Origin: Acheta domesticus
Lineage: Eukaryota > Arthropoda > Insecta > Orthoptera > Gryllidae
Direction: 5' to 3'
Assembly (NCBI GenBank): GCA_031308135.1
Contig: JAHLJT010000631.1
Span: forward strand, 261,658,925-261,722,924
Length of the DNA: 64,000 nt
In this document: piece by piece, positions 820 through 61,225 of the stretch
Position numbering within the stretch: position 1 is the stretch's first letter
Layout of the letters: every line of letters starts with the position of its first letter
Translations under genes and position numbers: made by a program
The notes under the pieces: generated by a model
Seen by the model: the letters and a program-made list of their open reading frames with translations, nothing else
What the model was told of the DNA's origin: nothing
Database searches by the model: none

Positions 820-3800
820 ATGGTGGCTGGCGATCTACACGTGGCCGCCCCCACCACCACCTCCAGCACCCTATGCTACCTCAGCCTATTTCAGATAGAG
901 AGCACGTGAACGGTGCTTATCGGTGGGAATATTTTGTTTGCAGAGAAGCAGCTGCAACTGGTGGCTGGCGACCTGCTCGTGGCCGCCCCCACCACCACCT
1001 CCAGCACCCTATGCCACCACAGCCTATTTCACATAGAGAGCACGTTAAAGCTGCTTATCGGTGGGAATATTTTGTTTGCAGACAAGCAGCTGCAACTGGT
1101 GGCTGGCGACCTGCTCGTGGCCGCCCCCACCACCACCTCCAGCACCCTATGCCACCCCAGCCTATTTCAGATAGAGAGCACGTGAAAGGTGCTTGTAAAT
1201 GGGAATATTTTGTTCGCAGACAAGCAGCTGCAACTGGTGGCTGGCGACCTGCTCGTGGCCGCCCCCACCACCACCTCCAGCACCCTATGCCACCACAGCC
1301 TATTTCACATAGAGAGCACGTGAAAGGTGCTTGTAAATGGGAATATTTTGTTCGCAGACAAGCAGCTGCAACTGGTGGCTGGCGACCTGCTCGTGGCCGC
1401 CCCCACCACCACCTCCAGCACCCTATGCCACCACAGCCTATTTCACATAGAGAGCACGTTAAAGCTGCTTATCGGTGGGAATATTTTGTTTGCAGACAAG
1501 CAGCTGCAACTGGTGGCTGGCGACCTGCTCGTGGCCGCCCCCACCACCACCTCCAGCACCCTATGCCACCACAGCCTATTACACATAGAGAGCACGTGAA
1601 AGCTGCTTATCGGTGGGAATATTTTGTTTGCAGACAAGCAGCTGCAACTGGTGGCTGGCGACCTGCTCGTGGCCGCCCCCACCACCACCTCCAGCACCCT
1701 ATTCTACCCCAGCCTATTTCACATAGAGAGCACGTTAAAGCTGCTTATCGGTGGGAATATTTTGTTTGCAGACAAGCAGCTGCAACTGGTGGCTGGCGAC
1801 CTGCTCGTGTCCGCCCCCACCACCACCTCCAGCACCCTATGCCACCACAGCCTATTTCACATAGAGAGCACGTGAAAGCTGCTTATCGGTGGGAATATTT
1901 TGTTTGCAGAGAAGCAGCTGCAACTGGTGGCTGGCGACCTGCTCGTGGCCGCCCCCACCACCACCTCCAGCACCCTATGCCACCACAGCCTATTTCACAT
2001 AGAGAGCACGTTAAAGCTGCTTATCGGTGGGAATATTTTGTTTGCAGACAAGCAGCTGCAACTGGTGGCTGGCGACCTGCTCGTGGCCGCCCCCACCACC
2101 ACCTCCAGCACCCTATGCCACCACAGCCTATTACACATAGAGAGCACGTGAAAGCTGCTTATCGGTGGGAATATTTTGTTTGCAGACAAGCAGCTGCAAC
2201 TGGTGGCTGGCGACCTGCTCGTGGCCGCCCCCACCACCACCTCCAGCACCCTATTCTACCCCAGCCTATTTCACATAGAGAGCACGTTAAAGCTGCTTAT
2301 CGGTGGGAATATTTTGTTTGCAGGCAAGCAGCTGCAACTGGTGGCTGGCGACCTGCTCGTGTCCGCCCCCACCACCACCTCCAGCACCCTATGCCACCAC
2401 AGCCTATTTCACATAGAGAGCACGTGAAAGCTGCTTATCGGTGGGAATATTTTGTTTGCAGAGAAGCAGCTGCAACTGGTGGCTGGCGACCTGCTCGTGG
2501 CCGCCCCCACCACCACCTCCAGCACCCTATGCCACCACAGCCTATTTCACATAGAGAGCACGTGAAAGCTGCTTATCGGTGGGAATATTTTGTTTGCAGA
2601 CAAGCAGCTGCAACTGGTGGCTGGCGACCTGCTCGTGGCCGCCCCCACCACCACCTCCAGCACCCTATTCTACCCCAGCCTATTTCACATAGAGAGCACG
2701 TTAAAGCTGCTTATCGGTGGGAATATTTTGTTTGCAGACAAGCAGCTGCAACTGGTGGCTGGCGACCTGCTCGTGTCCGCCCCCACCACCACCTCCAGCA
2801 CCCTATGCCACCACAGCCTATTTCACATAGAGAGCACGTGAAAGGTGCTTATCGGTGGGAATATTTTGTTTGCAGACAAGCAGCTGCAACTGGTGGCTGG
2901 CGACCTGCTCGTGGCCGCCCCCACCACCACCTCCAGCACCCTATGCCACCACAGCCTATTTCACATAGAGAGCACGTGAAAGCTGCTTATTGGTGGGAAT
3001 ATTTTGTTTGCAGAGAAGCAGCTGCAACTGGTGGCTGGCGACCTGCTCGTGGCCGCCCCCACCACCACCTCCAGCACCCTATGCCACCCCAGCATATTTC
3101 AGATAAAGAGCACGTGAAAGGTGCTTGTAAATGGGAATATTTTGTTCGCAGACAAGCAGCTGCAACTGGTGGCTGGCGACCTGCTCGTGGCCGCCCCCAC
3201 CACCACCTCCAGCGCCCTATGCCACCACAGCCTATTTCACATAGAGAGCACGTGAACGGTGCTTATCGGTGGGAATATTTTGTTCGCAGACAAGCAGCTG
3301 CAACTGGTGGCTGGCGACCTGCTCGTGGCCGCCCCCACCACCACCTCCAGCACCCTATGCCACCACAGCCTATTTCACATAGAGAGCACGTGAAAGGTGC
3401 TTATCGGTGGGAATATTTTGTTCGCAGACAAGCAGCTGCAACTGGTGGCTGGCGACCTGCTCGTGGCCGCCCCCACCACCACCTCCAGCACCCTATGTCA
3501 CCCCAGCCTATTTCAGATAGAGAGCAAGTTAAAGATGCTTATCGGTGGGAATCTTTTGTTTGCAGACAAGCAGCTGCAACTGGTGGCTGGCGACCTGCTC
3601 GTGGCCGCCCCCACCACCACCTCCAGCACCCTATTCTACCCCAGCCTATTTCACATAGAGAGCACGTGAAAGCTGCTTATCGGTGGGAATATTTTGTTCG
3701 CAGACAAGCAGCTGCAACTGGTGGCTGGCGACCTGCTCGTGGCCGCCCCCACCACCACCTCCAGCACCCTATGCTACCTCAGCATATTTCACATAGAGAG

Positions 3801-4175
3801 CACGTGAAAGCTGCTTATCGGTGGGAATAATTTTGTTCGCAGACAAGCAGCTGCAACTGGTGGCTGGCGACCTGCTCGTGGCCGCCCCCACCACCACCTC
3901 CAGCACCCTATGCTACCTCAGCATATTTCACATAGAGAGCACGTGAAAGCTGCTTATCGGTGGGAATAATTTTGTTCGCAGACAAGCAGCTGCAACTGGT
4001 GGCTGGCGACCTGCTCGTGGCCGCCCCCACCACCACCTCCAGCACCCTATGCTACCTCAGCATATTTCACATAGAGAGCACGTGAAAGCTGCTTATCGGT
4101 GGGAATAATTTTGTTCGCAGACAAGCAGCTGCAACTGGTGGCTGGCGACCTGCTCGTGGCCGCCCCCACCACCAC
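820..4175 (+). repeat. 138-bp minisatellite derived from a P450 intron/exon boundary
   Basis: About 25 head-to-tail units. The landmark GCTGCAACTGG recurs at 951 and every 138 bp to 3711, then at 3850, 3989 and 4128 (139-bp units with one extra A before the acceptor). The first unit, near 820, is degenerate and lacks the acceptor. Each full unit holds a 3' splice-site-like stretch (T-rich tract ending TTTGCAG or TTCGCAG), then sequence encoding [20 protein letters not shown], then about 70 bp of non-exon sequence that usually includes CACGTG. The final unit is continuous with the real P450 exon at 4121. Since 138 is 46 codons, frames stay open across units; one frame runs 1007 codons (807-3830). 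I read that as a by-product of the period, because differences between units change amino acids freely. Confidence 0.95.
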
Positions 4176-4301
4176 GTCGAGCACGCTGACGTTCGCGGTG
4201 CGGGCGCTGCTGCACCACCCGGAGGTGCAGCGCCGCAGCCAGGAGGAGCTGGACCGCGTGGTGGGCAGGGACCGCCTGCCAACGCTCGACGACCGCTTCA
4301 A
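4121..4301 (+). CDS. P450 exon: I-helix
   Basis: The acceptor TTCGCAG ends at 4120. The exon starts with two bases of a split codon and ends after two bases (AA) before donor GTGAGG at 4302. It encodes [20 protein letters not shown] onward to LPTLDDRF. 56 of its 59 whole codons end in G or C. If the preceding exon supplies G, the first residue is Asp. Confidence 0.88.
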
Positions 4302-7300
4302 GTGAGGGCGCGCGCAGCTTGGATTTTGGGAGGAGACAAATGTTTCCATCCAATGCATTTTAATAACTATAAAATATATCCTAATTAATGGATGAATATA
4401 ATAAATTTTCTGAACAATACGAAATTAGTCTTAGATTAGTAATTAGATTTTGATTATTGGATTTGGAAATTATTCCATTCCTCCCTATCACTAGCAGGGA
4501 AATTTATGAAATCAATTAGAGAATAAAATTTAAAGTATTAATTAATGGCTACCACTAAATACAAAAGGTTTTTAATTTTTAAAATTTTTGCAGTTTTTAA
4601 TGAAGTATGTTTTTAACTGTGTATTTCTATTTAAAGATTTGAAAATGAAATATAGTCTCAAAAAGTAATTTTTTTTATTAATAAAAATAATTTAATAATT
4701 TGGATATTTTTTTGAAGTGAAGGAGGATTATTTTTTACATGACGCTAAATATTTTTATTTCATAATTTTATCATTAGTTTAGTTAGTTAGTTTAGTTTTG
4801 TTAATGCCTTATTTTACGTGGCGAGACTCTTCATTCATTGTAAACAAGAAAATAGAACAATTACAATGTATTTCTCCTTTTTCTGATGGATAGAAGAAAA
4901 TCGTGTCTATCAGTACAGTACGTATTTAAATTTCTTTCTTTTTGCGATGCACTGTTAACAGCGTTTGGATCGAAAAATATTGATAAATATACATTTCTGT
5001 CCTCACAGCTTACCTTACACAGAAGCAATAATCAGGGAGACGTTACGATACAACACATTGCTTCCCTTGGCACTGCCACATTTAGCCGCAGAAGACACCA
5101 CTCTGGGAGGATACGACATTCCTAAGGTAGTCGCTCTTTCTTTCTCGTGCACTTAAAAGTTATTGCGATCATTATAAAAGACTGGAAAAACCCGGCAGGC
5201 GTTGTTCTGCTCTTGATCTCCCTCTTTCCCCTCGTATGTCCTTTTCTCACTGTTTCTCTCTTTCTCCCTCCCGCACCTTGTCCCTGTCTGTCTCTGCCGC
5301 TCTCTGTCCCTCTCATTCACATTTAAGTGCAGATTCTGCACATCACTGAGGAGGTGAGGTATTATCGGGAAGCGCCGGACCAGCAAATATGTAATAGAAT
5401 GTTCAAGAAAGCTTAATCCTGTAGATTACGGTGCGGGAAACGTTTATTTGAGGCCGAAGGCGCAGGAAACGTATCTCGCACCGTAATCTACAGGATTAAT
5501 TCTACAGGATTAATCCTTTAGGAGTTATTTAACAATATAGATTAAAAATCCTGCCGAATGTGTTGCGGGTTGCATTTGACATAAATATTTATTTTTGTTC
5601 TACAGCGCCATATAGTGGTGTTACGACAGATTTAACAGCACTTAGAGATAGAATATTTCAAACTTTTTAACGAATTATAATACTGTATACATAATTTATT
5701 AAAATTAAACGCAGTTTAACGAAGTATGCTGTGACGAATATGAAGGTTTGATTTGATATGAATTGTCTTATTTTACGTGGCGAGACTCAGGCCATAAGGC
5801 CTGCTCTTCCGTCTGACCACGCAAATTTCGCAACGCTCCTTTCACCAACTAGCAGAGAAAGGTCAGTCTCTGGCACCAAAATGAAGGTTCTCGAAGAATA
5901 CCTTTTGAATTTAGTTTGTGTGAAACCCCTACTACCTAAGTTCTTGTTTGAATACCTTCCCAAATTTCGGTCTGTCTTCTTCAATTACAATGTAGGCGTT
6001 CGGCATTTTCGACACTAGAGAGCTAGGTCGACTTCAGCCGCTGTGTCTAGGAGGAAGGGTTCCTTTGGTCGGAAAAATATAATTTCCCCAAGTGACTTAA
6101 TAATGTGTTATGGGAATTCCGATGTGGTATTGTTGACGTAATTAAATGAAGAAATAATGGGAGTCATTTCCGTCAATTTAAAATATTTATTTAGAGAGCC
6201 GGTTTTCGACGGCTTTGCCGGCCCCATCAGTCTTTTTGTATCATTAGTTCGGACACTGGCTGGTATATGAGACAGTCTCCCGACATTTGCCACATCCAAT
6301 AACTACCAATGCGCTAGTCAAATAGGATAGAAGTGAAATTATGATTCAATTTATTTTAAATAATATTTCTCTAAATATTAGAATTACTTCTAATAAAATA
6401 AATAAAAACTGAGAAGCAGAATATAATATTAAATACAATTTTAATGTACACAATCGAACGAAACATTTACTATAAAGATTCTCAATGATTAATGAAGTGT
6501 CAATACTTATTTTATACTCTTCTCTGTGATTGGTCAAGAACCTGTATCATAATGAAAACTGTTTGGTGATGAGTATCATTATGCAACGGATTGCAGCCAT
6601 CAAATGACAGAATTATACAATGGTAGTAGAACAAAATGCAACTTTGTGCACCTATACGAAATGGCCTTGAATTGGAATTTCACCAGCATATTTAATTGTT
6701 TGGAAACCTTCCTAGCGGCTAGTTCCCGCGCTACTAAAGGTGCTGGTGAATTTCAAATTCAAGGCCATTTCGTGTAGATGCACAAAGTTACATTTTATTT
6801 AATTGGAATAATTCATTTATCTTGTAATATATTTTGCATTAGTCTCAATTTTCCACTTAAAATTAACGATTTTCGAGCAAATTGTGGACTGTACAAACAA
6901 TACAGTTACCAACTGTATGTGAGGTAGTGCTGCATCACGAACGAGTGTGGAATGAACTATCGAATAATACTGATAACTATTTGTCTCCTAGAATACAATC
7001 GTCATCTGCAACTTGCATGCTATTCATCATGACAAAGAGCTATGGGGTGACCCACAGAATTTCCGGCCAGAACGGTTTCTGGACGATCATGGCAAACTGA
7101 AAAGGGACATCACTTTGCCATTTGGAACAGGTAAGTAGCCATCAATCTCATTGGACATTTTAAGATACATAACATGTAGGTATTGAAAATTGATAAAATA
7201 ATTACAAAACTATATTTTGTTTATACGAATTTTAATGAGAATGCTTAACTGAAGAGTTCTAAATGCCAATGCCCTTGAACTTTTACTATATCAAGAAGTT

Positions 7301-7551: not shown

Positions 7552-7811
7552 GTTATTATTAATTATTATTGCTATTGTTGAAAGAAAGAAAGCCCCGCCC
7601 ACGTAATTTTCGCACGTTTTGCGTAGGAAAGCGCCTGTGTCCCGGGGAGACCTTCTCGCGGCAAGGCATGTTCGTTGTACTCGCTGCGCTGTTGCAAAAC
7701 TTCAACATGGAACCAAAAGATCGCAGCACTTTGCCACCAATCGACCACGCAATTAACGGACTGTCCCTCACTCCAAACTTCATGTGGGTGCGTATGATCC
7801 CCCGTGACTGA
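4121..7811 (+). CDS. Cytochrome P450 (CYP2-clan-like), C-terminal four exons
   Basis: Haem-thiolate monooxygenase, expected on the endoplasmic reticulum membrane and reduced by NADPH-P450 reductase; substrate unknown. Four exons join in frame: 4121-4301, 5009-5126, 6992-7130 and 7627-7811, with GT/AG borders and matching phases (1, 2, 0, 1). Together they give about 207 residues, the C-terminal 40% of a P450. Visible motifs in order: I-helix ([11 protein letters not shown]), HHPEVQRR and the conserved [12 protein letters not shown] stretch, NLPYTEA with K-helix [18 protein letters not shown] (PERF), and haem loop [11 protein letters not shown] with the cysteine ligand. These patterns are those of insect CYP2-clan P450s (the group with CYP15, 18, 303-306); I cannot choose a family. 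The N-terminal anchor and upstream exons are outside the window. Odd points: the I-helix lacks the usual acidic residue, exon one is extremely GC-rich, and its start is amplified into the upstream array. It could be a pseudogene, but these exons are unbroken. Confidence 0.92.
4302..5008 (+). other. P450 intron (707 bp)
   Basis: AT-rich. Near 4803-4830 it holds a roughly 27-bp piece matching the 3' end of SINE family A (CTTATTTTACGTGGCGAGAC), in minus orientation. No other structure seen. Confidence 0.8.
5009..5126 (+). CDS. P450 exon: K-helix
   Basis: The acceptor CTCACAG ends at 5008 and donor GTAGTC begins at 5127. The first base completes a codon (AAC, Asn) with the previous exon, giving [20 protein letters not shown] and ending GGYDIPK. 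The ETLR tetrad is the invariant ExxR of P450s. Confidence 0.92.
5413..5514. repeat. Short inverted repeat starting and ending in TTAA
   Basis: Perfect 23-bp arms (5413-5435 and 5477-5499), each beginning at its outer end with TTAATCCTGTAGATTACGG, around a 41-bp loop. The last 14 bp of the right arm side (TCTACAGGATTAAT) is repeated directly at 5501-5514. Probably a tiny foldback element; family unknown. Confidence 0.75.
5757..5880 (-). mobile_element. SINE-A fragment (3' part)
   Basis: The plus strand begins with the tail complement (GAATTG, then CTTATTTTACGTGGCGAGAC) and matches the reverse complement of the 3' end of the full copy at 42742-43099, up to the segment ending CCAACTAGC. 5'-truncated. 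Confidence 0.75.
6632..6796. mobile_element. 165-bp foldback MITE
   Basis: Arms of about 57 bp (6632-6690 and 6739-6796) are inverted complements with only a few mismatches; both contain CGAAATGGCCTTGAATT or its near match. The central 48 bp is unique and there is no coding capacity. No obvious target-site duplication, so superfamily unknown. Confidence 0.8.
6992..7130 (+). CDS. P450 exon: PERF region
   Basis: The acceptor TCTCCTAG ends at 6991 and the strong donor GTAAGT begins at 7131. It starts in phase 0 with [19 protein letters not shown], continues [20 protein letters not shown] and ends LPFGT plus one base of the next Gly codon. Confidence 0.93.
7131..7626 (+). other. P450 intron (496 bp) with TTA microsatellite
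   Basis: AT-rich intron. 7510-7570 is a near-perfect (TTA)n tract lying about 60 bp before the acceptor of the terminal exon. Confidence 0.8.
7627..7811 (+). CDS. P450 terminal exon: haem-binding loop and stop
   Basis: The acceptor TTTTGCGTAG ends at 7626. It completes [11 protein letters not shown], then encodes [18 protein letters not shown] and the usual hydrophobic C-terminal strand, ending IPRD and TGA at 7809-7811. Confidence 0.93.
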
Positions 7812-9510: not shown

Positions 9511-10400
9511 TCTCATACAGCGAGGCAAGGGCTTTAAAAGAGTAAATAGAACTCCAACTTAGGTCGCGTTGTGCTAAAGGTTACAAACAGTAGAGCGACG
9601 ATATTCCCATTGCATACCTCAATAATAAATAATTATTAAATGCGATGAAAATGGGAAAATTGGGGGTATAGGTTACAATTACAGGAAGAAAAAAGTTACA
9701 GAAAGTAAGTTTGGGAAATCATGTGCTTCTCTTTAGGGCAGTTTAAATTTATATTTTGGGAACCTAGATTTCATTCCTCGGCATTGGTTGTAGGTTTCTC
9801 GTAGGTTGAATGTGGAAGTTGCTGAGTAGGATAATAAGGAAAGGAACACTTATTTGATTGGAGTGTGAAGAACAAACTCACTATGAAGTTGTTTGTTTCA
9901 TACGTGTCAATGCTCGTTTACGGCATTGCGAAGGATTTTAATTTGGGTGTTAAAGCATTTTTATATTCAAATTACTTATGCTTTAACACCCCCTATTTCT
10001 TTTTCTTTTGTTTCATTTCACAAAATGTTAATTCTGTTTTTTAAATTAATTGTAATCTGCCATTCCTAATGTTAATCTCTTGTTTTAACTGTTTAATTAA
10101 TTGTTTGCTATTTTCTTGTACTAGAAAACTGATTATGGCTAAGCCATCGAAAGCTGCTCTTGTTGAAATACATAACATCGTTGGCAAAGACAACACCTGT
10201 GATCATTTAATTTTAATTTGGAGCGTTTTACGTAGCGAAGAGAATTCAAATGTGCTACTTGGGCGAAAAGGCTGATTTCCTTTCGTATCACGAACGTTTT
10301 TAAATGTTTGGTTTCAATTACAGTAATGTAGTACACCTGAAGACACTATCAACATTGACACACGGTCGATATTTTTATATCGTACACATCAGTACAGTAT
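9511..10400. other. Unassigned AT-rich DNA
   Basis: No coding, repeat or RNA signal that I can support. Confidence 0.5.
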
Positions 10401-10681
10401 AACCCAGCGTAGCAAACTCTAATTCACATAGACACGTTGAGGAAAACTGTGGCTATAGTCTACCAGATTTTATAGCAAGTTGTAGATACAGAGGGAAACG
10501 ACTTAACCGAAATCCTTCAACAAGGTTTTTGCAACTCTGCTAACCCAGCGTTGCAAACTCTAATTCACATAGACACGTTGAGGAAAAATGTGGCTATAGT
10601 CTACCAGATTTTATAGCAAGTTGTAGATACAGAGGGAAACGACTTAACCGAAATCCTTCTACAAGTTTATTGCAACTCTGC
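10401..10681. repeat. Tandem duplication, two 141-bp units
   Basis: Units start at 10401 and 10542 (AACCCAGCG...) and are nearly identical, with only a few substitutions. Low divergence implies a recent duplication. Confidence 0.9.
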
Positions 10682-10724
10682 TTTTTTTTGATAACTATAT
10701 TTCAAGTCAAAACCGCAATAAAGT

Positions 10725-25082: not shown

Positions 25083-26345
25083 ACAGCTGAGATCCTTCAA
25101 AACCTATTCAGAAAATCAGTGGCACTTATTTCATCAATATTTTATGCAATACTGAGAATGTTCTACTTCCCTCCACATGGTACAAATTATACTTTTTTCA
25201 AAACCTGAGAAAGATCATTATTTCACTTCCTACCGACCCATCAGCAGGTTACCAATTCTGTCGAAAGTGCTTGAGAAATTCATCCTTAAACGTACACTAC
25301 CAATCTTAAAAGAAAACGACCTAATTATAGACCATCAACTTGGATTCCGACAACAACATTCTACAGTTGGATCAAATTCACAGAATAGTAAGTGCTCAAC
25401 AAAAACTTTGAAAATAGATGGTATAGCTCAGCGGTATTTCTAGATGTGACACAAGCCTTTGACAAAATATGGCATGAAGGGCTGTTGTATAAAATCAAGA
25501 AAATATTTTCAACCCGTCTTCACCCTTTCAAATCTTACTTAATAAATAGATTCTTCCAAGTAAAGTATAAAACAGCCCTGTCCTCATTTCGACCAATAGA
25601 CATCGAAGTCCCTCAAGGAAGTGTGTTGGGACCTATATTTTATCTCATATTCATTAATGATATACCAATAGCACACAATGTTGTAACAGGCATCTTCGCC
25701 GATGATACGGCAGTACTAACATCCAGCGAAGAACTCAAAGTAGTATCAGAAGCACTAGAAAATCACTTAAAACAATAAACCAATGGCTCTCTCGTTGGCA
25801 CATTAAAATCAACGAACTAAATTCTAAACATGTGACCTTCACTCTGAGAAAAGGCGACTGTACAGCAATAACAATAAACAGATCTTGAAAGTAATGATGT
25901 TAAATAGTTATGGGTTCATTTGGATATAAGATTAACGTCCATATAAAAAAGAAAAGAAAATAACTAGAATTAAAAACTAAAATCTACCAATTGCTAATTG
26001 GTAAACACTCTCAACTATCGTTGTCAAACAAAATACCTACATATATAAGTATCAAAAATATCCTATAACTCGTATAGACCTACGGCATTTAACTTTGGAG
26101 CTCAGCCTGCGTCTCCAACGTATAAATTCTTCAGCGATTCCAGTCAAACTATCTTCGATAAGTAATAAACGCACCATGGTATTCAGCTATGAATATTTAA
26201 TCCACAATGACCTTCACAACAAGACCATCAAAGAAGAAATAACATCTGTGAGTCAAAAATACCACACAAGACTTACAAATCATCTCACTATTAATCTATT
26301 ATATAATAGTGAAGACAGAAACACCATAAATTGCAAGATATAACG
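25083..26345 (+). pseudogene. Jockey-clade LINE reverse transcriptase remnant
   Basis: Reverse transcriptase of a non-LTR retrotransposon. Pieces in order: AEILQNLFRKSVALISSIFY with the ILRMFYFPP segment (frame 1); SYRPISRLPILSKVLEKFIL (25228) and DHQLGFRQQHST; then after a frame change near 25390 AVFLDVTQAFDKIWHEGLLY, KSYLINRFFQVKYKTALSSF, VPQGSVLGP and catalytic FADDTA (Asp pair at 25701-25706). A diverged C-terminal part at 26095-26343 carries IHNDL, IKEEI and LLYNSE blocks typical of Jockey C-termini. At least three frameshifts or stops and an internal deletion (25860-26060) show it is dead. The 5' ORF1 and endonuclease are absent. Confidence 0.92.
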
Positions 26346-33139: not shown

Positions 33140-34330
33140 AGAAGAGAAAGTTATGTAATGCAGCGCGAAAATACTGCGAATTTCCGGCAGAAAAACACTT
33201 ATTGCAGGGCCCTGGTAACTAAAAAAGTGGATAAATCCAGTTGCTAAATTAAGAAAAAAAAATCCTTTAACAGGTGGTGTTGCCAAAATCCATGTTAAAT
33301 GGATCCTTGAAACCGAAAAATCGATTGATGGCAAGAAGGTGCGTCCGTCGGTCCGTCCGTCCGTCGGTCCGTCCGTCGGTCCGTCCGTCGGTCCGTCCGT
33401 CGGTCCGTCCGTCGGTCCGTCCGTCGGTCCGTCCGTCGGTCCGTCCGTCGGTCCGTCCGTCGGTCCGTCCGTCGGTCCGTCCGTCGGTCCGTCCGTCGGT
33501 CCGTCCGTCGGTCCGTCCGTCGGTCCGTCCGTCGGTCCGTCCAGCGGTCCGTCCGTCGGTCCGTCCAGCGGTCCGTCCAGCGGTCCGTCCAGCGGTCCGT
33601 CCAGCGGTCCGTCCAGCGGTCCGTCCAGCGGTCCGTCCAGCGGTCCGTCCAGCGGTCCGTCCAGCGGTCCGTCCAGCGGTCCGTCCAGCGGTCCGTCCAG
33701 CGGTCCGTCCAGCGGTCCGTCCAGCGGTCCGTCCAGCGGTCCGTCCAGCGGTCCGTCCAGCGGTCCGGCCAGCGGTCCGGCCAGCGGTCCGTCCAGCGGT
33801 CCGTCCAGCGGTCCGGCCAGCGGTCCGTCCAGCAGTCCGTCCGTCCAGCGGTCCGTCCAGCGGTCCGTCCAGTGGTCCGTCCGTCGGTCCGTCCGTCGGT
33901 CCGTCCGTCGGTCCGTCCGTCGGTCCGTCCGTCGGTCCGTCCGTCGGTCCGTCCGTCGGTCCGTCCGTCGGTCCGTCCGTCGGTCCGTCCGTCGGTCCGT
34001 CCGTCGGTCCGTCCGTCGGTCCGTCCGTCGGTCCGTCCGTCGGTCCGTCCGTCGGTCCGTCCGTCGGTCCGTCCGTCGGTTTGTGAAGAACGCTAGCGAT
34101 TAAACCGTTCAGCTGATTTTCTCCTAAGTTGAAATTCCCTAATCCATCTGGCTGATGTCACGGTTCCTCTAATATGAAACCGATATTTTAATTTTGAGGG
34201 GTACTTTATATGAAGCCCCTGGGACATTCAATTTTTCAAAATATAGCGCAAACAATTTTGATTACATTTTGTTGGATAGTCTGGAGGTCGTTTAAGAAAA
34301 TTGAAAAAAAATCAAAATTTGTGCCCTGAG
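33140..34330 (+). mobile_element. INE/Helentron-like repeat with expanded core
   Basis: The 5' part (GTTATGTAATGCAGCGCG, TTTCCGGCAG, CCTTGAAACCGAAAAATCGA) and 3' part (ACGCTAGCGATTAAACCGTT, TTGAAATTCCCTAATC, ACTTTATATGAAGCCCCTGG) match the copies at 10725 and 57170, but the GTCC core between them has grown to 739 bp. Confidence 0.75.
33342..34080 (+). repeat. 12-bp minisatellite (GTCCGTCCGTCG / GTCCGTCCAGCG), about 61 units
   Basis: Three blocks: about 33342-33540 is almost pure GTCCGTCCGTCG; about 33541-33873 is mainly GTCCGTCCAGCG with a few CCGGCC variants and one 4-bp phase shift near 33840; about 33874-34080 returns to GTCCGTCCGTCG. Open frames across it (R-P-S-V or G-P-S-V repeats) come from the 12-bp period. 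Confidence 0.96.
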
Positions 34331-45160: not shown

Positions 45161-46003
45161 GCGGGGAGGCGGGGCGAGGCGGGGCGGGACGGGGCGAGGC
45201 GGGGCGAGGCGGGGCGGGACGGGGCGGGGCGAGGCGTGGCGAGGCGTGGCGAGGCGGGGCGAGGCGGGGCGAGGCGGGGCGAGGCGGGGCGAGGCGGGGC
45301 GAGGCGGGGCGAGGCGGGGCGAGGCGGGGCGAGGCGGGGCGAGGCGGGGCGAGGCGGGGCGAGGCGGGGCGAGGCGGGGCGTGGCGAGGCGGGGCGAGGC
45401 GGGGCGAGGCGGGGCGAGGCGGGGCGAGGCGGGGCGAGGCGGGGCGAGGCGGGGCGAGGCGGGGCGAGGCGGGGCGAGGCGGGGCGAGGCGGGGCGAGGC
45501 GGGGCGAGGCGGGGCGAGGCGGGGCGAGGCGGGGCGAGGCGGGGCGAGGCGGGGCGAGGCGGGGCGAGGCGGGGCGGGGCGAGGCGGGGCGAGGCGGGGC
45601 GAGGCGGGGCGAGGCGGGGCGGGGCGAGGCGGGGCGAGGCGGGGCGGGGCGAGGCGGGGCGAGGCGGGGCGGGGCGAGGCGGGGCGAGGCGGGGCGGGGC
45701 GAGGCGGGGCGAGGCGGGGCGAGGCGGGGCGAGGCGGGGCGAGGCGGGGCGAGGCGGGGCGAGGCGGGGCGAGGCGGGGCGAGGCGGGGCGAGGCGGGGC
45801 GTGGCGAGGCGTGGCGAGGCGGGGCGAGGCGGGGCGAGGCGGGGCGAGGCGGGGCGAGGCGGGGCGAGGCGGGGCGGGGCGGGGCGAGGCGGGGCGAGGC
45901 GGGGCGAGGCGGGGCGGGGCGAGGCGGGGCGAGGCGGGGCGAGGCGGGGCGAGGCGGGGCGAGGCGGGGCGAGGCGGGGCGAGACGGGGCGAGGCGGGGC
46001 GAC
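45161..46003 (+). repeat. 843-bp GC array, 10-bp period made of GAGGC + GGGGC
   Basis: Almost every base belongs to 5-mers GAGGC or GGGGC in alternation. Doubled GGGGC (for example 45571-45580, 45621, 45646) shifts the phase by 5; occasional GTGGC, GAGAC and GGGAC variants occur. Open frames of up to 392 codons on both strands (Pro/Arg or Gly/Arg-rich) follow from the period and lack any coding signature. Confidence 0.97.
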
Positions 46004-58800: not shown

Positions 58801-58802
58801 CG

Positions 58803-59140
58803 GCGGGAGCGCGGGCGGGAGCGCGGGCGGGAGCGCGGGCGGGAGCGCGGGCGGGAGCGCGGGCGGGAGCGCGGGCGGGAGCGCGGGCGGGAGCGCGGGC
58901 GGGGGCGCGGGCGGGAGCGCGGGCGGGAGCGCGGGCGGGAGCGCGGGCGGGAGCGCGGGCGGGAGCGCGGGCGGGAGCGCGGGCGGGAGCGCGGGCGGGA
59001 GCGCGGGCGGGAGCGCGGGCGGGAGCGCGGGCGGGAGCGCGGGCGGGAGCGCGGGCGGGAGCGCGGGCGGGAGCGCGGGCGGGAGCGCGGGCGGGAGCGC
59101 GGGCGGGAGCGCGGGCGGGAGCACGGGCGGGAGAATGAGA
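58803..59140 (+). repeat. 12-bp GC minisatellite (GGGAGCGCGGGC), about 28 units
   Basis: Nearly perfect units with very few variants (GGGGGC once near 58902, GCAC near 59120). Open frames in five or six phases (for example RERG or PPAL repeats) are artefacts of the 12-bp period. Units contain GCGCG, capable of Z-DNA. Confidence 0.96.
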
Positions 59141-59905: not shown

Positions 59906-59907
59906 AT

Positions 59908-61225
59908 TTCTGAATTCCAGGAATAAAATATCTGCAATAGGTAGTTTGGCGGTACCTGTAGCCGAATACAGTTTTGGACTAGTGGACTGGACTGAGCAAG
60001 AAATTCGCACCATGGATCGAAAAACCAGAAAACTGCTAACAATGCATCATGTTTCCCACCCTCGAGCTGATGTACATAGACTTTATGTGGCACGTAAGGA
60101 GGGAGGAAGAGGCCTCAGACAAATTGAGGCCTCCTGGCACAACGCAATAGTCGGGATGGGGAAGTATGTAGTCAGCCATCAAGACGACCCTCTAATGAGG
60201 CAGGTCATGAGATCTGACCGAAGAATGGGAAACAGAGGCATTGTTAGTGGAGCAAGAAACATTGCGAAGAAAACTAGGCAAGACACGTCGAATAACACAG
60301 ACACTGAACTTCTGATGCTGCTAAACATGAAGTGTGAGACACAAAAAATGTTAAAGAAATCGTGGAGAGACAAACCACTCCACGGACAATACATAAAAAG
60401 AATGGACAAAGTGCAGATCAATAAAGATCAATCATTTATGTGGCTTAAAAGGGGAAGGATGAAGCCAGAATCGGAAGCACTTGTAATAGCTGCCCAAGAT
60501 CAGGCCTTGAGAACACGACTTTATGATAAAGCGGTTCTCAAAATTTCCCAAGATGACAAATGCCGCATTTGCCTGGAGCAAGTAGAAACCATTGATCATA
60601 TTGTCTCAGCTTGTCCAATCCTAGCAAAGACCGAATATCTTAAAAGACATGATAGGGTGTGTAGCTACCTCCACTGGCAGATCTGTACCGCCCTCGAAGT
60701 TCCAAACACATGCCCCAAGTGGTACGAACACTCACCGAAACCGGTGACGTCTGTTCGATTGTGTACGATATTGTACGACCAACAAATTCAAACTGAGCGC
60801 ACGATAGCGGCAAACAAACCGGATATAGTTATCCGGGATTTGGCGAAAAAATCGTGTTTATTTATCGATGTTGCTGTACCTTGCGATCAAACGTCGTTAC
60901 CAAGGAGGCAGAGAAACGTCTTAAATGCAAGAGTTTGGAAATCGAGATCAGCCGAATGTGGGGCGTAAAAGCACAGGTCGTCCCGATAGTTATCGGAGCT
61001 CTGGGATTTGTTCCGCAAAATTTGAGTAAGAACTTGTCTAAACTCCCAGGTAATTCAAAAGACTGGGAAGTGCAAGAAATTGCTTTATTTGGAACAGCCC
61101 ACATTTTGCGTAATGTATTGTAGAGGCACTGATAGTCACCGAATCTGCTCCTTAGGTAGCTGGTTGCAACCTGGAGTAGATTTTATATTCAGCCGACTCA
61201 TAAGATCTTTAGTCGTGATGTAGTG
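59908..61225 (+). pseudogene. R4/Dong-like LINE copy 1: C-terminal RT tail, CCHC and endonuclease
   Basis: 3' part of a non-LTR retrotransposon that cuts its target with a restriction-like endonuclease. The frame opens straight out of the TAA tract (FLNSRNKISAIGSLAVPVAE), continues through DWTEQEIRTMDRKTRKLLTM and RKEGGRGLRQIE (region after the RT), a CX2CX8HX4C knuckle (CRICLEQVETIDHIVSAC, near 60560), then KPDIVIRDL...CLFIDVAVPCD, the PD...D core of a PD-(D/E)XK-like nuclease, and VPIVIGALGFVPQ with FGTAHILRNVL before the stop at 61121-61123. A single-base deletion near 60888 shifts the frame; otherwise it is intact. A 3' UTR of about 100 bp leads into a TAA tract. Clade assignment (R4/Dong) is by recall. 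Confidence 0.9.

What the first reader, a model, noticed from the sequence alone, without database searches (positions are those of the whole stretch)
820..4301. Minisatellite seeded by a P450 exon start, carrying 23 decoy splice acceptors
Each 138-bp unit repeats the intron end, the AG acceptor and the first 55+ bases of the I-helix exon, and the final unit is the real exon start. The spliceosome would meet about 23 near-identical acceptors before the true one. Copy number could modulate exon choice or transcript integrity of a P450. Visible directly: array, acceptors, continuity with exon. Inferred: effect on splicing.
Basis: partly seen in the sequence, partly recalled or inferred. Interest (0 to 1): 0.85.

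Follow-up and report, generated by a model that had tools for sequence, protein, structure and literature searches.

The report
Cricket P450 gene's repeated splice sites
In a cricket P450 gene, the spot where an exon begins has been copied in tandem two dozen times inside the neighbouring intron, and a second array copies the end of another exon; this kind of structure is already described in amphioxus, but here it offers a natural test of how cells choose among near-identical splice sites.

Summary
Window 821-4184 holds a 138-bp tandem array in intron 5 of an intact nine-exon CYP304-like P450 gene of a cricket: one partial and 23 full units, each ending in a splice acceptor, then the real acceptor and exon 6 (4121-4301). 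The real acceptor scores no better than any decoy, and 23 of 23 decoys, spliced with exon 6's own donor, would truncate the protein. Outside the window I found a mirror-image array after exon 3: a 92-bp unit (last 82 bp of the exon plus GTAAGTGGCA) with 6 decoy donors. A paralog starting 75 kb upstream has both arrays, with 3 decoy acceptors and 21 decoy donors. Array units and coding exons share variants. Such arrays are known from amphioxus as 'mirages', where regular splicing was not disturbed. Best reading: junction-spanning duplications, expanded by unequal exchange and tolerated because exon definition favours the site nearest the exon's other splice site. Which acceptor is used, and any effect of copy number, is untested. 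Against a simple story, most units also hold a weak donor that could make a frame-keeping pseudo-exon. New member of a known kind.

The parts
821..943 (+). Left-most, partial array unit; begins inside the exon-derived half
944..4120 (+). 23 full units (20 of 138 bp, 3 of 139 bp): 67 bp of exon 6 start, then 71-72 bp of intron end with AG acceptor; all in intron 5
4049..4120 (+). Real intron-5 end and acceptor (72 bp), identical to the 72 bp before the acceptors at 3843 and 3982
4121..4301 (+). Exon 6 (181 bp) of the P450; donor GTGAGG at 4302
5009..5126 (+). Exon 7 (RETLR, the ExxR motif)
6992..7130 (+). Exon 8 (FRPERF)
7627..7811 (+). Exon 9 (GKRLCPGE, cysteine motif; TGA stop)

Best explanation
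This is a 'mirage' minisatellite: a tandem duplication across an exon/intron boundary that grew inside the intron by unequal exchange or slippage. Gene A (window) and its paralog B each carry an acceptor-side array before exon 6 and a donor-side array after exon 3, on the intron side of the exon in each case. The cell most likely uses the copy nearest the exon's other splice site (exon definition), so the working site is set by position rather than sequence, and the arrays are mostly neutral passengers. They recombine with the exon beside them, so that the working splice site and perhaps a codon are replaced now and then by array copies. Shown: anatomy, comparable local strength, truncation by decoys with the exon's own partner site, variants shared by array and exon, intact genes. 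Inferred: site choice by exon definition, near-neutrality, the growth mechanism, the direction of exchange.
For: Gene A reads as a complete 510-aa and gene B as a complete 509-aa P450, 16 of 16 introns GT-AG. A-B dN/dS is 0.048/0.260 over the coding sequence. The donor-side array (A: true + 6 decoys + a cut-off unit; B: true + 21) has GAG|GTAAGT in each full unit. Acceptor matrix from 19 local sites: A's real site 7.5, 21 of 23 decoys higher, 2 equal. In the donor arrays the best acceptor-like AG scores 6.0, below the weakest of the 19 (7.0). Introns beside exon 6 (4461, 707 nt) and exon 3 (8802, 997 nt) are long; between long introns, sites closest across the exon are preferred (PMC9225289, abstract). 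The Gryllus longicercus protein P0001 (95% identical) runs through both junctions with no inserted or missing residue; that annotation used RNA-seq and proteins (PMC11213874, passages). The real intron ends of A and B differ at 9 of about 72 places while exon 6 differs at 1 of 181; A's real end equals those of its last two decoys, B's is 2 off B's first.
Against: No RNA from this locus was seen. Whether G. longicercus has the arrays is unknown, so its protein says little about how decoys are ignored. Purifying selection may date largely from before the arrays. Acceptor units are not pure half-exons: 20 of 23 in A and 3 of 3 in B hold GTGGGA 117 nt after the acceptor; the common form TCG|GTGGGA scores 7.9, below 18 of 19 local donors but above one; a 117-nt pseudo-exon keeps the frame and is open in 7 of 23 units of A and 1 of 3 of B. 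Local scores are a poor guide either way: in B the real acceptor (10.3) is slightly above its decoys (9.2-10.2), and in A two AG sites upstream of the array (425, 427) also outscore the real one. The exon half of A's units is less variable than the intron half (4 of 67 against 18 of 71 sites, Fisher p 0.002, cut chosen after the fact; 6 of 71 against 16 of 67, p 0.019, with the cut first used), which plain neutrality does not predict.
Confidence: 0.68

Rival explanations
1. Copy number tunes output: decoys hold splicing factors or divert a share of transcripts into truncated, decayed RNA, so the arrays act as a length-dependent brake on P450 dosage.
For: With the exon's own partner site, 23 of 23 decoy acceptors and 6 of 6 decoy donors in A, and 2 of 3 and 20 of 21 in B, give early stops. 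Decoys score like the real site. Precedents: a VNTR in ABCA7 intron 18 with a donor in each unit, where exon-19 skipping rises with length (PMC5954066, passages), and decoy exons that promote intron retention (PMC12017769, passages). A and B have opposite array lengths (23/6 against 3/21).
Against: Amphioxus arrays of this kind did not disturb regular splicing (PMC3087553, section 16). No decoy-spliced protein was found (13 candidates scored, one hit, P0001, which has normal exons), though decayed RNA would leave none.
Confidence: 0.15
2. Some units are used as cassette exons: acceptor plus GTGGGA donor give a 117-nt, frame-keeping exon that adds 39 residues repeating the start of exon 6.
For: 7 of 23 units in A and 1 of 3 in B give an open frame; the donor-like site scores 7.9.
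Against: 18 of 19 local donors score higher; 13 of the 20 A units with the site carry a stop; no array-coded peptide in the protein database (146 candidates, none at E <= 1), though that query was a 78-residue array frame, not such an isoform; the inserted residues would fall in a conserved P450 segment.
Confidence: 0.07
3. The arrays are stages of intron birth or exon turnover; intron 3, which the compact paralogs lack, arose from such duplications.
For: Introns 2, 3 and 4 of A/B are absent from the compact paralogs; the amphioxus authors proposed this route.
Against: Loss of three adjacent introns in the compact genes explains the same pattern; the acceptor array sits in intron 5, which the compact gene also has; in the compact gene the bases after GACGAG are CTGTCG, not GT.
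Confidence: 0.06
4. The arrays, or their lengths, are assembly artefacts.
For: Tandem arrays are hard to assemble; the amphioxus authors found one of theirs aberrantly assembled in a draft genome (PMC3087553, passages).
Against: A's units differ at 22 sites in mixed order; two loci carry the same units with different numbers and flanks; 264 kb holds no N.
Confidence: 0.04

Closest known systems
'Mirage' minisatellites of amphioxus (Adh3; globins BflGb6, BflGb9)
   Same: Minisatellite-like tandem duplications of exon-intron boundaries; acceptor-side (BflGb6, 150-160 bp) and donor-side (BflGb9, 157 bp) forms; AG/GT signals in many units; concerted evolution (PMC3087553, section 16).
   Different: Insect P450; up to 23 decoys against 6 and 3 units in two BflGb6 haplotypes; both forms in one gene and its paralog; here the edge (real) site shares its sequence with neighbouring units, whereas in BflGb6 cluster boundaries were excluded from homogenisation. 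No haplotype, RNA or somatic data here.
ABCA7 intron-18 VNTR (human)
   Same: Array next to a splice site with a donor in each unit, like the donor-side array (PMC5954066, passages).
   Different: 25-bp unit described as intronic; no acceptor-side array in the passages seen; effect of length on exon skipping shown there, not here.
Internal tandem repeats of human genes in segmental duplications
   Same: Minisatellites, some at exon-intron boundaries, in recent paralogs (PMC2812944, passages).
   Different: Units about 30 bp repeated about 4 times on average; taken to lengthen exons or form new introns.
Decoy exons in retained introns (OGT)
   Same: Splice signals inside an intron that are seldom spliced in (PMC12017769, passages).
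   Different: Single pseudo-exons with both splice sites and a shown effect on intron retention.

Membership tests
Mirage minisatellite | Tandem repeat whose unit spans an exon-intron boundary | tested here: met
   138-bp unit spans the intron 5/exon 6 junction; 92-bp unit spans exon 3/intron 3
Mirage minisatellite | Authentic exon lies at the cluster edge | tested here: met
   Exon 6 follows the last unit; exon 3's tail is the first donor unit
Mirage minisatellite | Units carry AG or GT splice signals | tested here: met
   24 acceptors in A; 7 donors in A and 22 in B, real ones included
Mirage minisatellite | Concerted evolution of units | tested here: met
   Identical or near-identical units, variants shared among units and between loci; no tree built
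Mirage minisatellite | Regular splicing not disturbed (RT-PCR) | not testable with these tools
   No RNA for this locus; intact reading frames only
Mirage minisatellite | Length polymorphism between haplotypes, somatic instability | not testable with these tools
   One assembly; only the paralogs differ (23 against 3 decoy acceptors; 6 against 21 decoy donors)
Array of alternative exons (Dscam type, recalled) | Each copy is a complete exon with both splice sites | tested here: inconclusive
   Units lack the exon's own 3' part; 20 of 23 hold a weak donor giving a 117-nt pseudo-exon, open in 7; no RNA
CYP304-like cytochrome P450 | P450 domain with ExxR, PERF and cysteine motifs (motifs recalled) | tested here: met
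   Pfam PF00067 for exons 6 and 7; motifs read in the translation
CYP304-like cytochrome P450 | Closest named relatives are CYP304 | tested here: met
   Many of the 120 listed of 383 hits are named P450 304a1 (not counted); the nearest are unnamed or 'hypothetical' cricket proteins, and one listed hit is named CYP15C1; no tree built

The most novel reading that the evidence does not exclude
The intronic arrays act as a donor pool for the coding exons beside them: array copies move into the real exon and change the P450. In gene B the third codon before the exon-3 donor reads Lys (AAG), as in 20 of 20 full-length B decoys compared column by column, the one 91-bp B decoy and 5 of 6 A decoys, whereas A's real exon, the compact paralog and the G. 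longicercus protein have Thr; and the working acceptors of A and B come from different unit lineages. Against it: P0002, a 76% relative from an unnamed source, also has Lys, so the direction is open. A role beyond passive exchange is not shown.
Probability: 0.25. Interest if true: 0.65.

Novelty: new member of a known kind. Interest (0 to 1): 0.5.

Why it matters
Gene A presents the spliceosome with 24 near-identical acceptors and 7 donors alike, and gene B with 4 and 22: a ready natural experiment on whether position alone, through exon definition, decides between equal splice sites. It extends junction-spanning minisatellites, which my reading met under that name only in amphioxus (and in looser form in human genes), to an insect, and suggests that such arrays exchange sequence with the exon beside them. 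None of my ten paper searches used the word 'mirage', so I cannot say that this is the first insect case.

Tried and rejected
Transposon origin of the arrays: a 10-mer (TAACCGTTGA) lies left of B's acceptor array and right of A's donor array and nowhere else in 264 kb, but no element was identified; the genome search for the intron half of the 138-bp unit did not complete. RNA structure hiding decoys: three units folded unremarkably (z -0.93 to -1.38). Higher-order repeat: not significant (lag 4, p 0.13; lag 1, p 0.06). Array-coded peptides or a decoy-spliced isoform in the protein database: none. Arrays at other P450 genes: none at the 4 compact paralogs, in the 3.2-kb locus L003, or in two 10-kb stretches with distant P450 exons; a list of all P450 genes could not be obtained. 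Microhomology seed: the right flank of B's donor array reads GTAAGTGGTTGTGAGCGCTTTCC, with GCGCTT as at the unit start; suggestive only. Arrays as the cause of low A-B divergence in exons 3 and 6: exons 1 and 2 are as similar and have no array. My first claim that units carry a single kind of usable splice site did not survive a scan of all GT and AG in the arrays; I lowered the best explanation from 0.74 to 0.68 for it. An early donor matrix had one of 19 training donors off by one base; corrected and reused.

Full report
What is there. The window lies on a 267-Mb contig of a 2.33-Gb genome. Its left end holds a 138-bp tandem array, 821-4184. Cutting at the acceptor gives 24 sites: 23 upstream copies and the real one at 4121. 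A unit has 67 bp of the start of exon 6 (differences from the real exon fixed in all units only at bases 56, 59 and 65, all third codon positions) and 71-72 bp of intron end. Exon 6 (4121-4301) and exon 7 (5009-5126) both hit the P450 family.

The gene. I fetched 200 kb upstream. tblastn with a compact paralog located the exons. Gene A has nine exons, C392:261631164-261666735, 510 aa, no internal stop, introns GT-AG; exons 6-9 lie in the window. Gene B, same strand, nine exons, 509 aa, spans 261555985-261595369; its start codon is 75 kb before that of A and its end 36 kb before A begins. The best relative is a Gryllus longicercus protein, 95% identical to A; many lower hits from other insects are named P450 304a1. 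So this is a CYP304-like gene of a cricket, Gryllus or near it.

A second array. Just after exon 3 both genes carry a 92-bp repeat made of the last 82 bp of the exon plus GTAAGTGGCA. A has the true donor, 6 decoys and a cut-off unit; B has the true donor and 21 decoys. The acceptor array in B has 3 decoy acceptors plus a left-most exon copy whose flank is not acceptor-like (score -6.9). Searched genome-wide (best candidates only), the 92-bp unit forms arrays in A and B alone, with 5 single matches in compact paralogs; a search with exon 6 itself found repeated copies of its start only in A and B. No such array was seen at the other P450 stretches looked at.

Would decoys work? A matrix from 19 local acceptors (the two exon-6 acceptors left out) scores A's real site 7.5 and the decoys 7.5-10.4; in B the real site scores 10.3 and its decoys 9.2-10.2. 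The matrix is small, and two AG sites upstream of the array (425, 427) also outscore A's real site. But the last two decoys of A are identical to the real site over the preceding 72 bp, so a local model cannot tell them apart. Used with exon 6's donor, 23 of 23 decoys in A stop the frame at codon 337 or 383, and 6 of 6 decoy donors in A stop it at 205-207. In B, 2 of 3 decoy acceptors and 20 of 21 decoy donors stop early; one of each leaves a longer open frame. What separates the real site is position: it makes an exon of 181 nt, the nearest decoy one of 320. Between long introns, sites closest across the exon are preferred (PMC9225289, abstract).

A result against a simple story. Scoring all GT in the acceptor array shows TCG|GTGGGA at 7.9, weaker than 18 of 19 local donors but not absurd. 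It lies 117 nt after the acceptor. In A, 20 of 23 units hold GGTGGGAA there (19 as TCG|GTGGGA, one as TTG|GTGGGA), and in B 3 of 3. A pseudo-exon between the two sites keeps the frame and is open in 7 of 23 units of A and 1 of 3 of B. A second cryptic donor, CAC|GTGAAA, scores 1.9. So units are not strictly half-exons, and use as cassette exons is not excluded. In the donor arrays the best AG scores 6.0, below all 19 real acceptors.

Exchange with the coding exon. A and B differ by dS 0.40-0.85 in exons 4, 5, 7, 8 and 9 but 0-0.09 in exons 1, 2, 3 and 6; the second group has GC3 0.91-0.97, the first 0.37-0.71. This looks like gene conversion between the paralogs; exons 1 and 2 have no array, so arrays are not needed for it. 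Within the donor unit, base 75 is C (Thr) in A's real exon and the compact gene, and the G. longicercus protein has Thr; it is A (Lys) in B's real exon, in all B decoys and in 5 of 6 A decoys; A's fourth decoy carries both private bases of A's real exon. P0002, a more distant relative, also has Lys, so the direction is open, but array and exon share variants that neighbouring copies lack. The real acceptors of A and B come from different unit lineages: 9 differences in about 72 bp against 1 in the 181-bp exon. The exon half of A's units has 4 variable sites in 67 and the intron half 18 in 71 (p 0.002, cut chosen after the fact; p 0.019 with the first cut at base 71). Copying from the conserved exon could explain this, but was not tested. 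Three units were shortened by one base (the extra A) for that count.

What it is. The structure matches the 'mirages' of amphioxus: minisatellite-like duplications of intron-exon boundaries, on either side of exons, with splice signals in many units, concerted evolution and no disturbance of regular splicing by RT-PCR (PMC3087553, section 16 read in full). The first mirage report (PMC117041) is not held and I saw nothing of it. The human ABCA7 repeat shows that exon skipping can rise with the length of an array that has a donor in each unit (PMC5954066, passages). So the kind is known. The amphioxus precedent favours harmless passengers; ABCA7 keeps a length effect open.

Limits. No RNA, no population data and no other cricket genome could be examined. 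The list of all P450 genes in this genome did not complete. I have not shown which acceptor is used.

Noticed in passing
C392:261649893-261650589 (L009) and C392:261563728-261565748 (L018), outside the window: Donor-side minisatellite after exon 3 of both P450 genes, 92-bp unit, 6 and 21 decoy donors.
   Followed up: yes
C392:261463034-261518451, outside the window: Four near-identical compact CYP304-like genes (three on the minus strand) lacking introns 2-4 of genes A and B.
   Followed up: partly
exons 1, 2, 3, 6 of genes A and B: These four exons are 96-99% identical between the paralogs and very GC-rich at third positions, while the other five are 80-89% identical: a mosaic that suggests gene conversion.
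   Followed up: partly
C392:261571323 and C392:261650604: The same 10-mer TAACCGTTGA flanks B's acceptor array on the left and A's donor array on the right; no other copy in 264 kb.
   Followed up: partly
window 33343-34080, 45166-46002, 58802-59133: Long GC-rich short-unit arrays (12, 10 and 12 bp; 61, 85 and 28 copies).
   Followed up: no
window 25156-25778, 59907-60968: Reverse-transcriptase-like fragments (RVT_1, one of two above its cut-off; zf-RVT below its cut-off), probably remains of retroelements.
   Followed up: partly
window 10400-10682: A two-copy 141-bp tandem repeat, 96% matching; no link to an exon was looked for.
   Followed up: no
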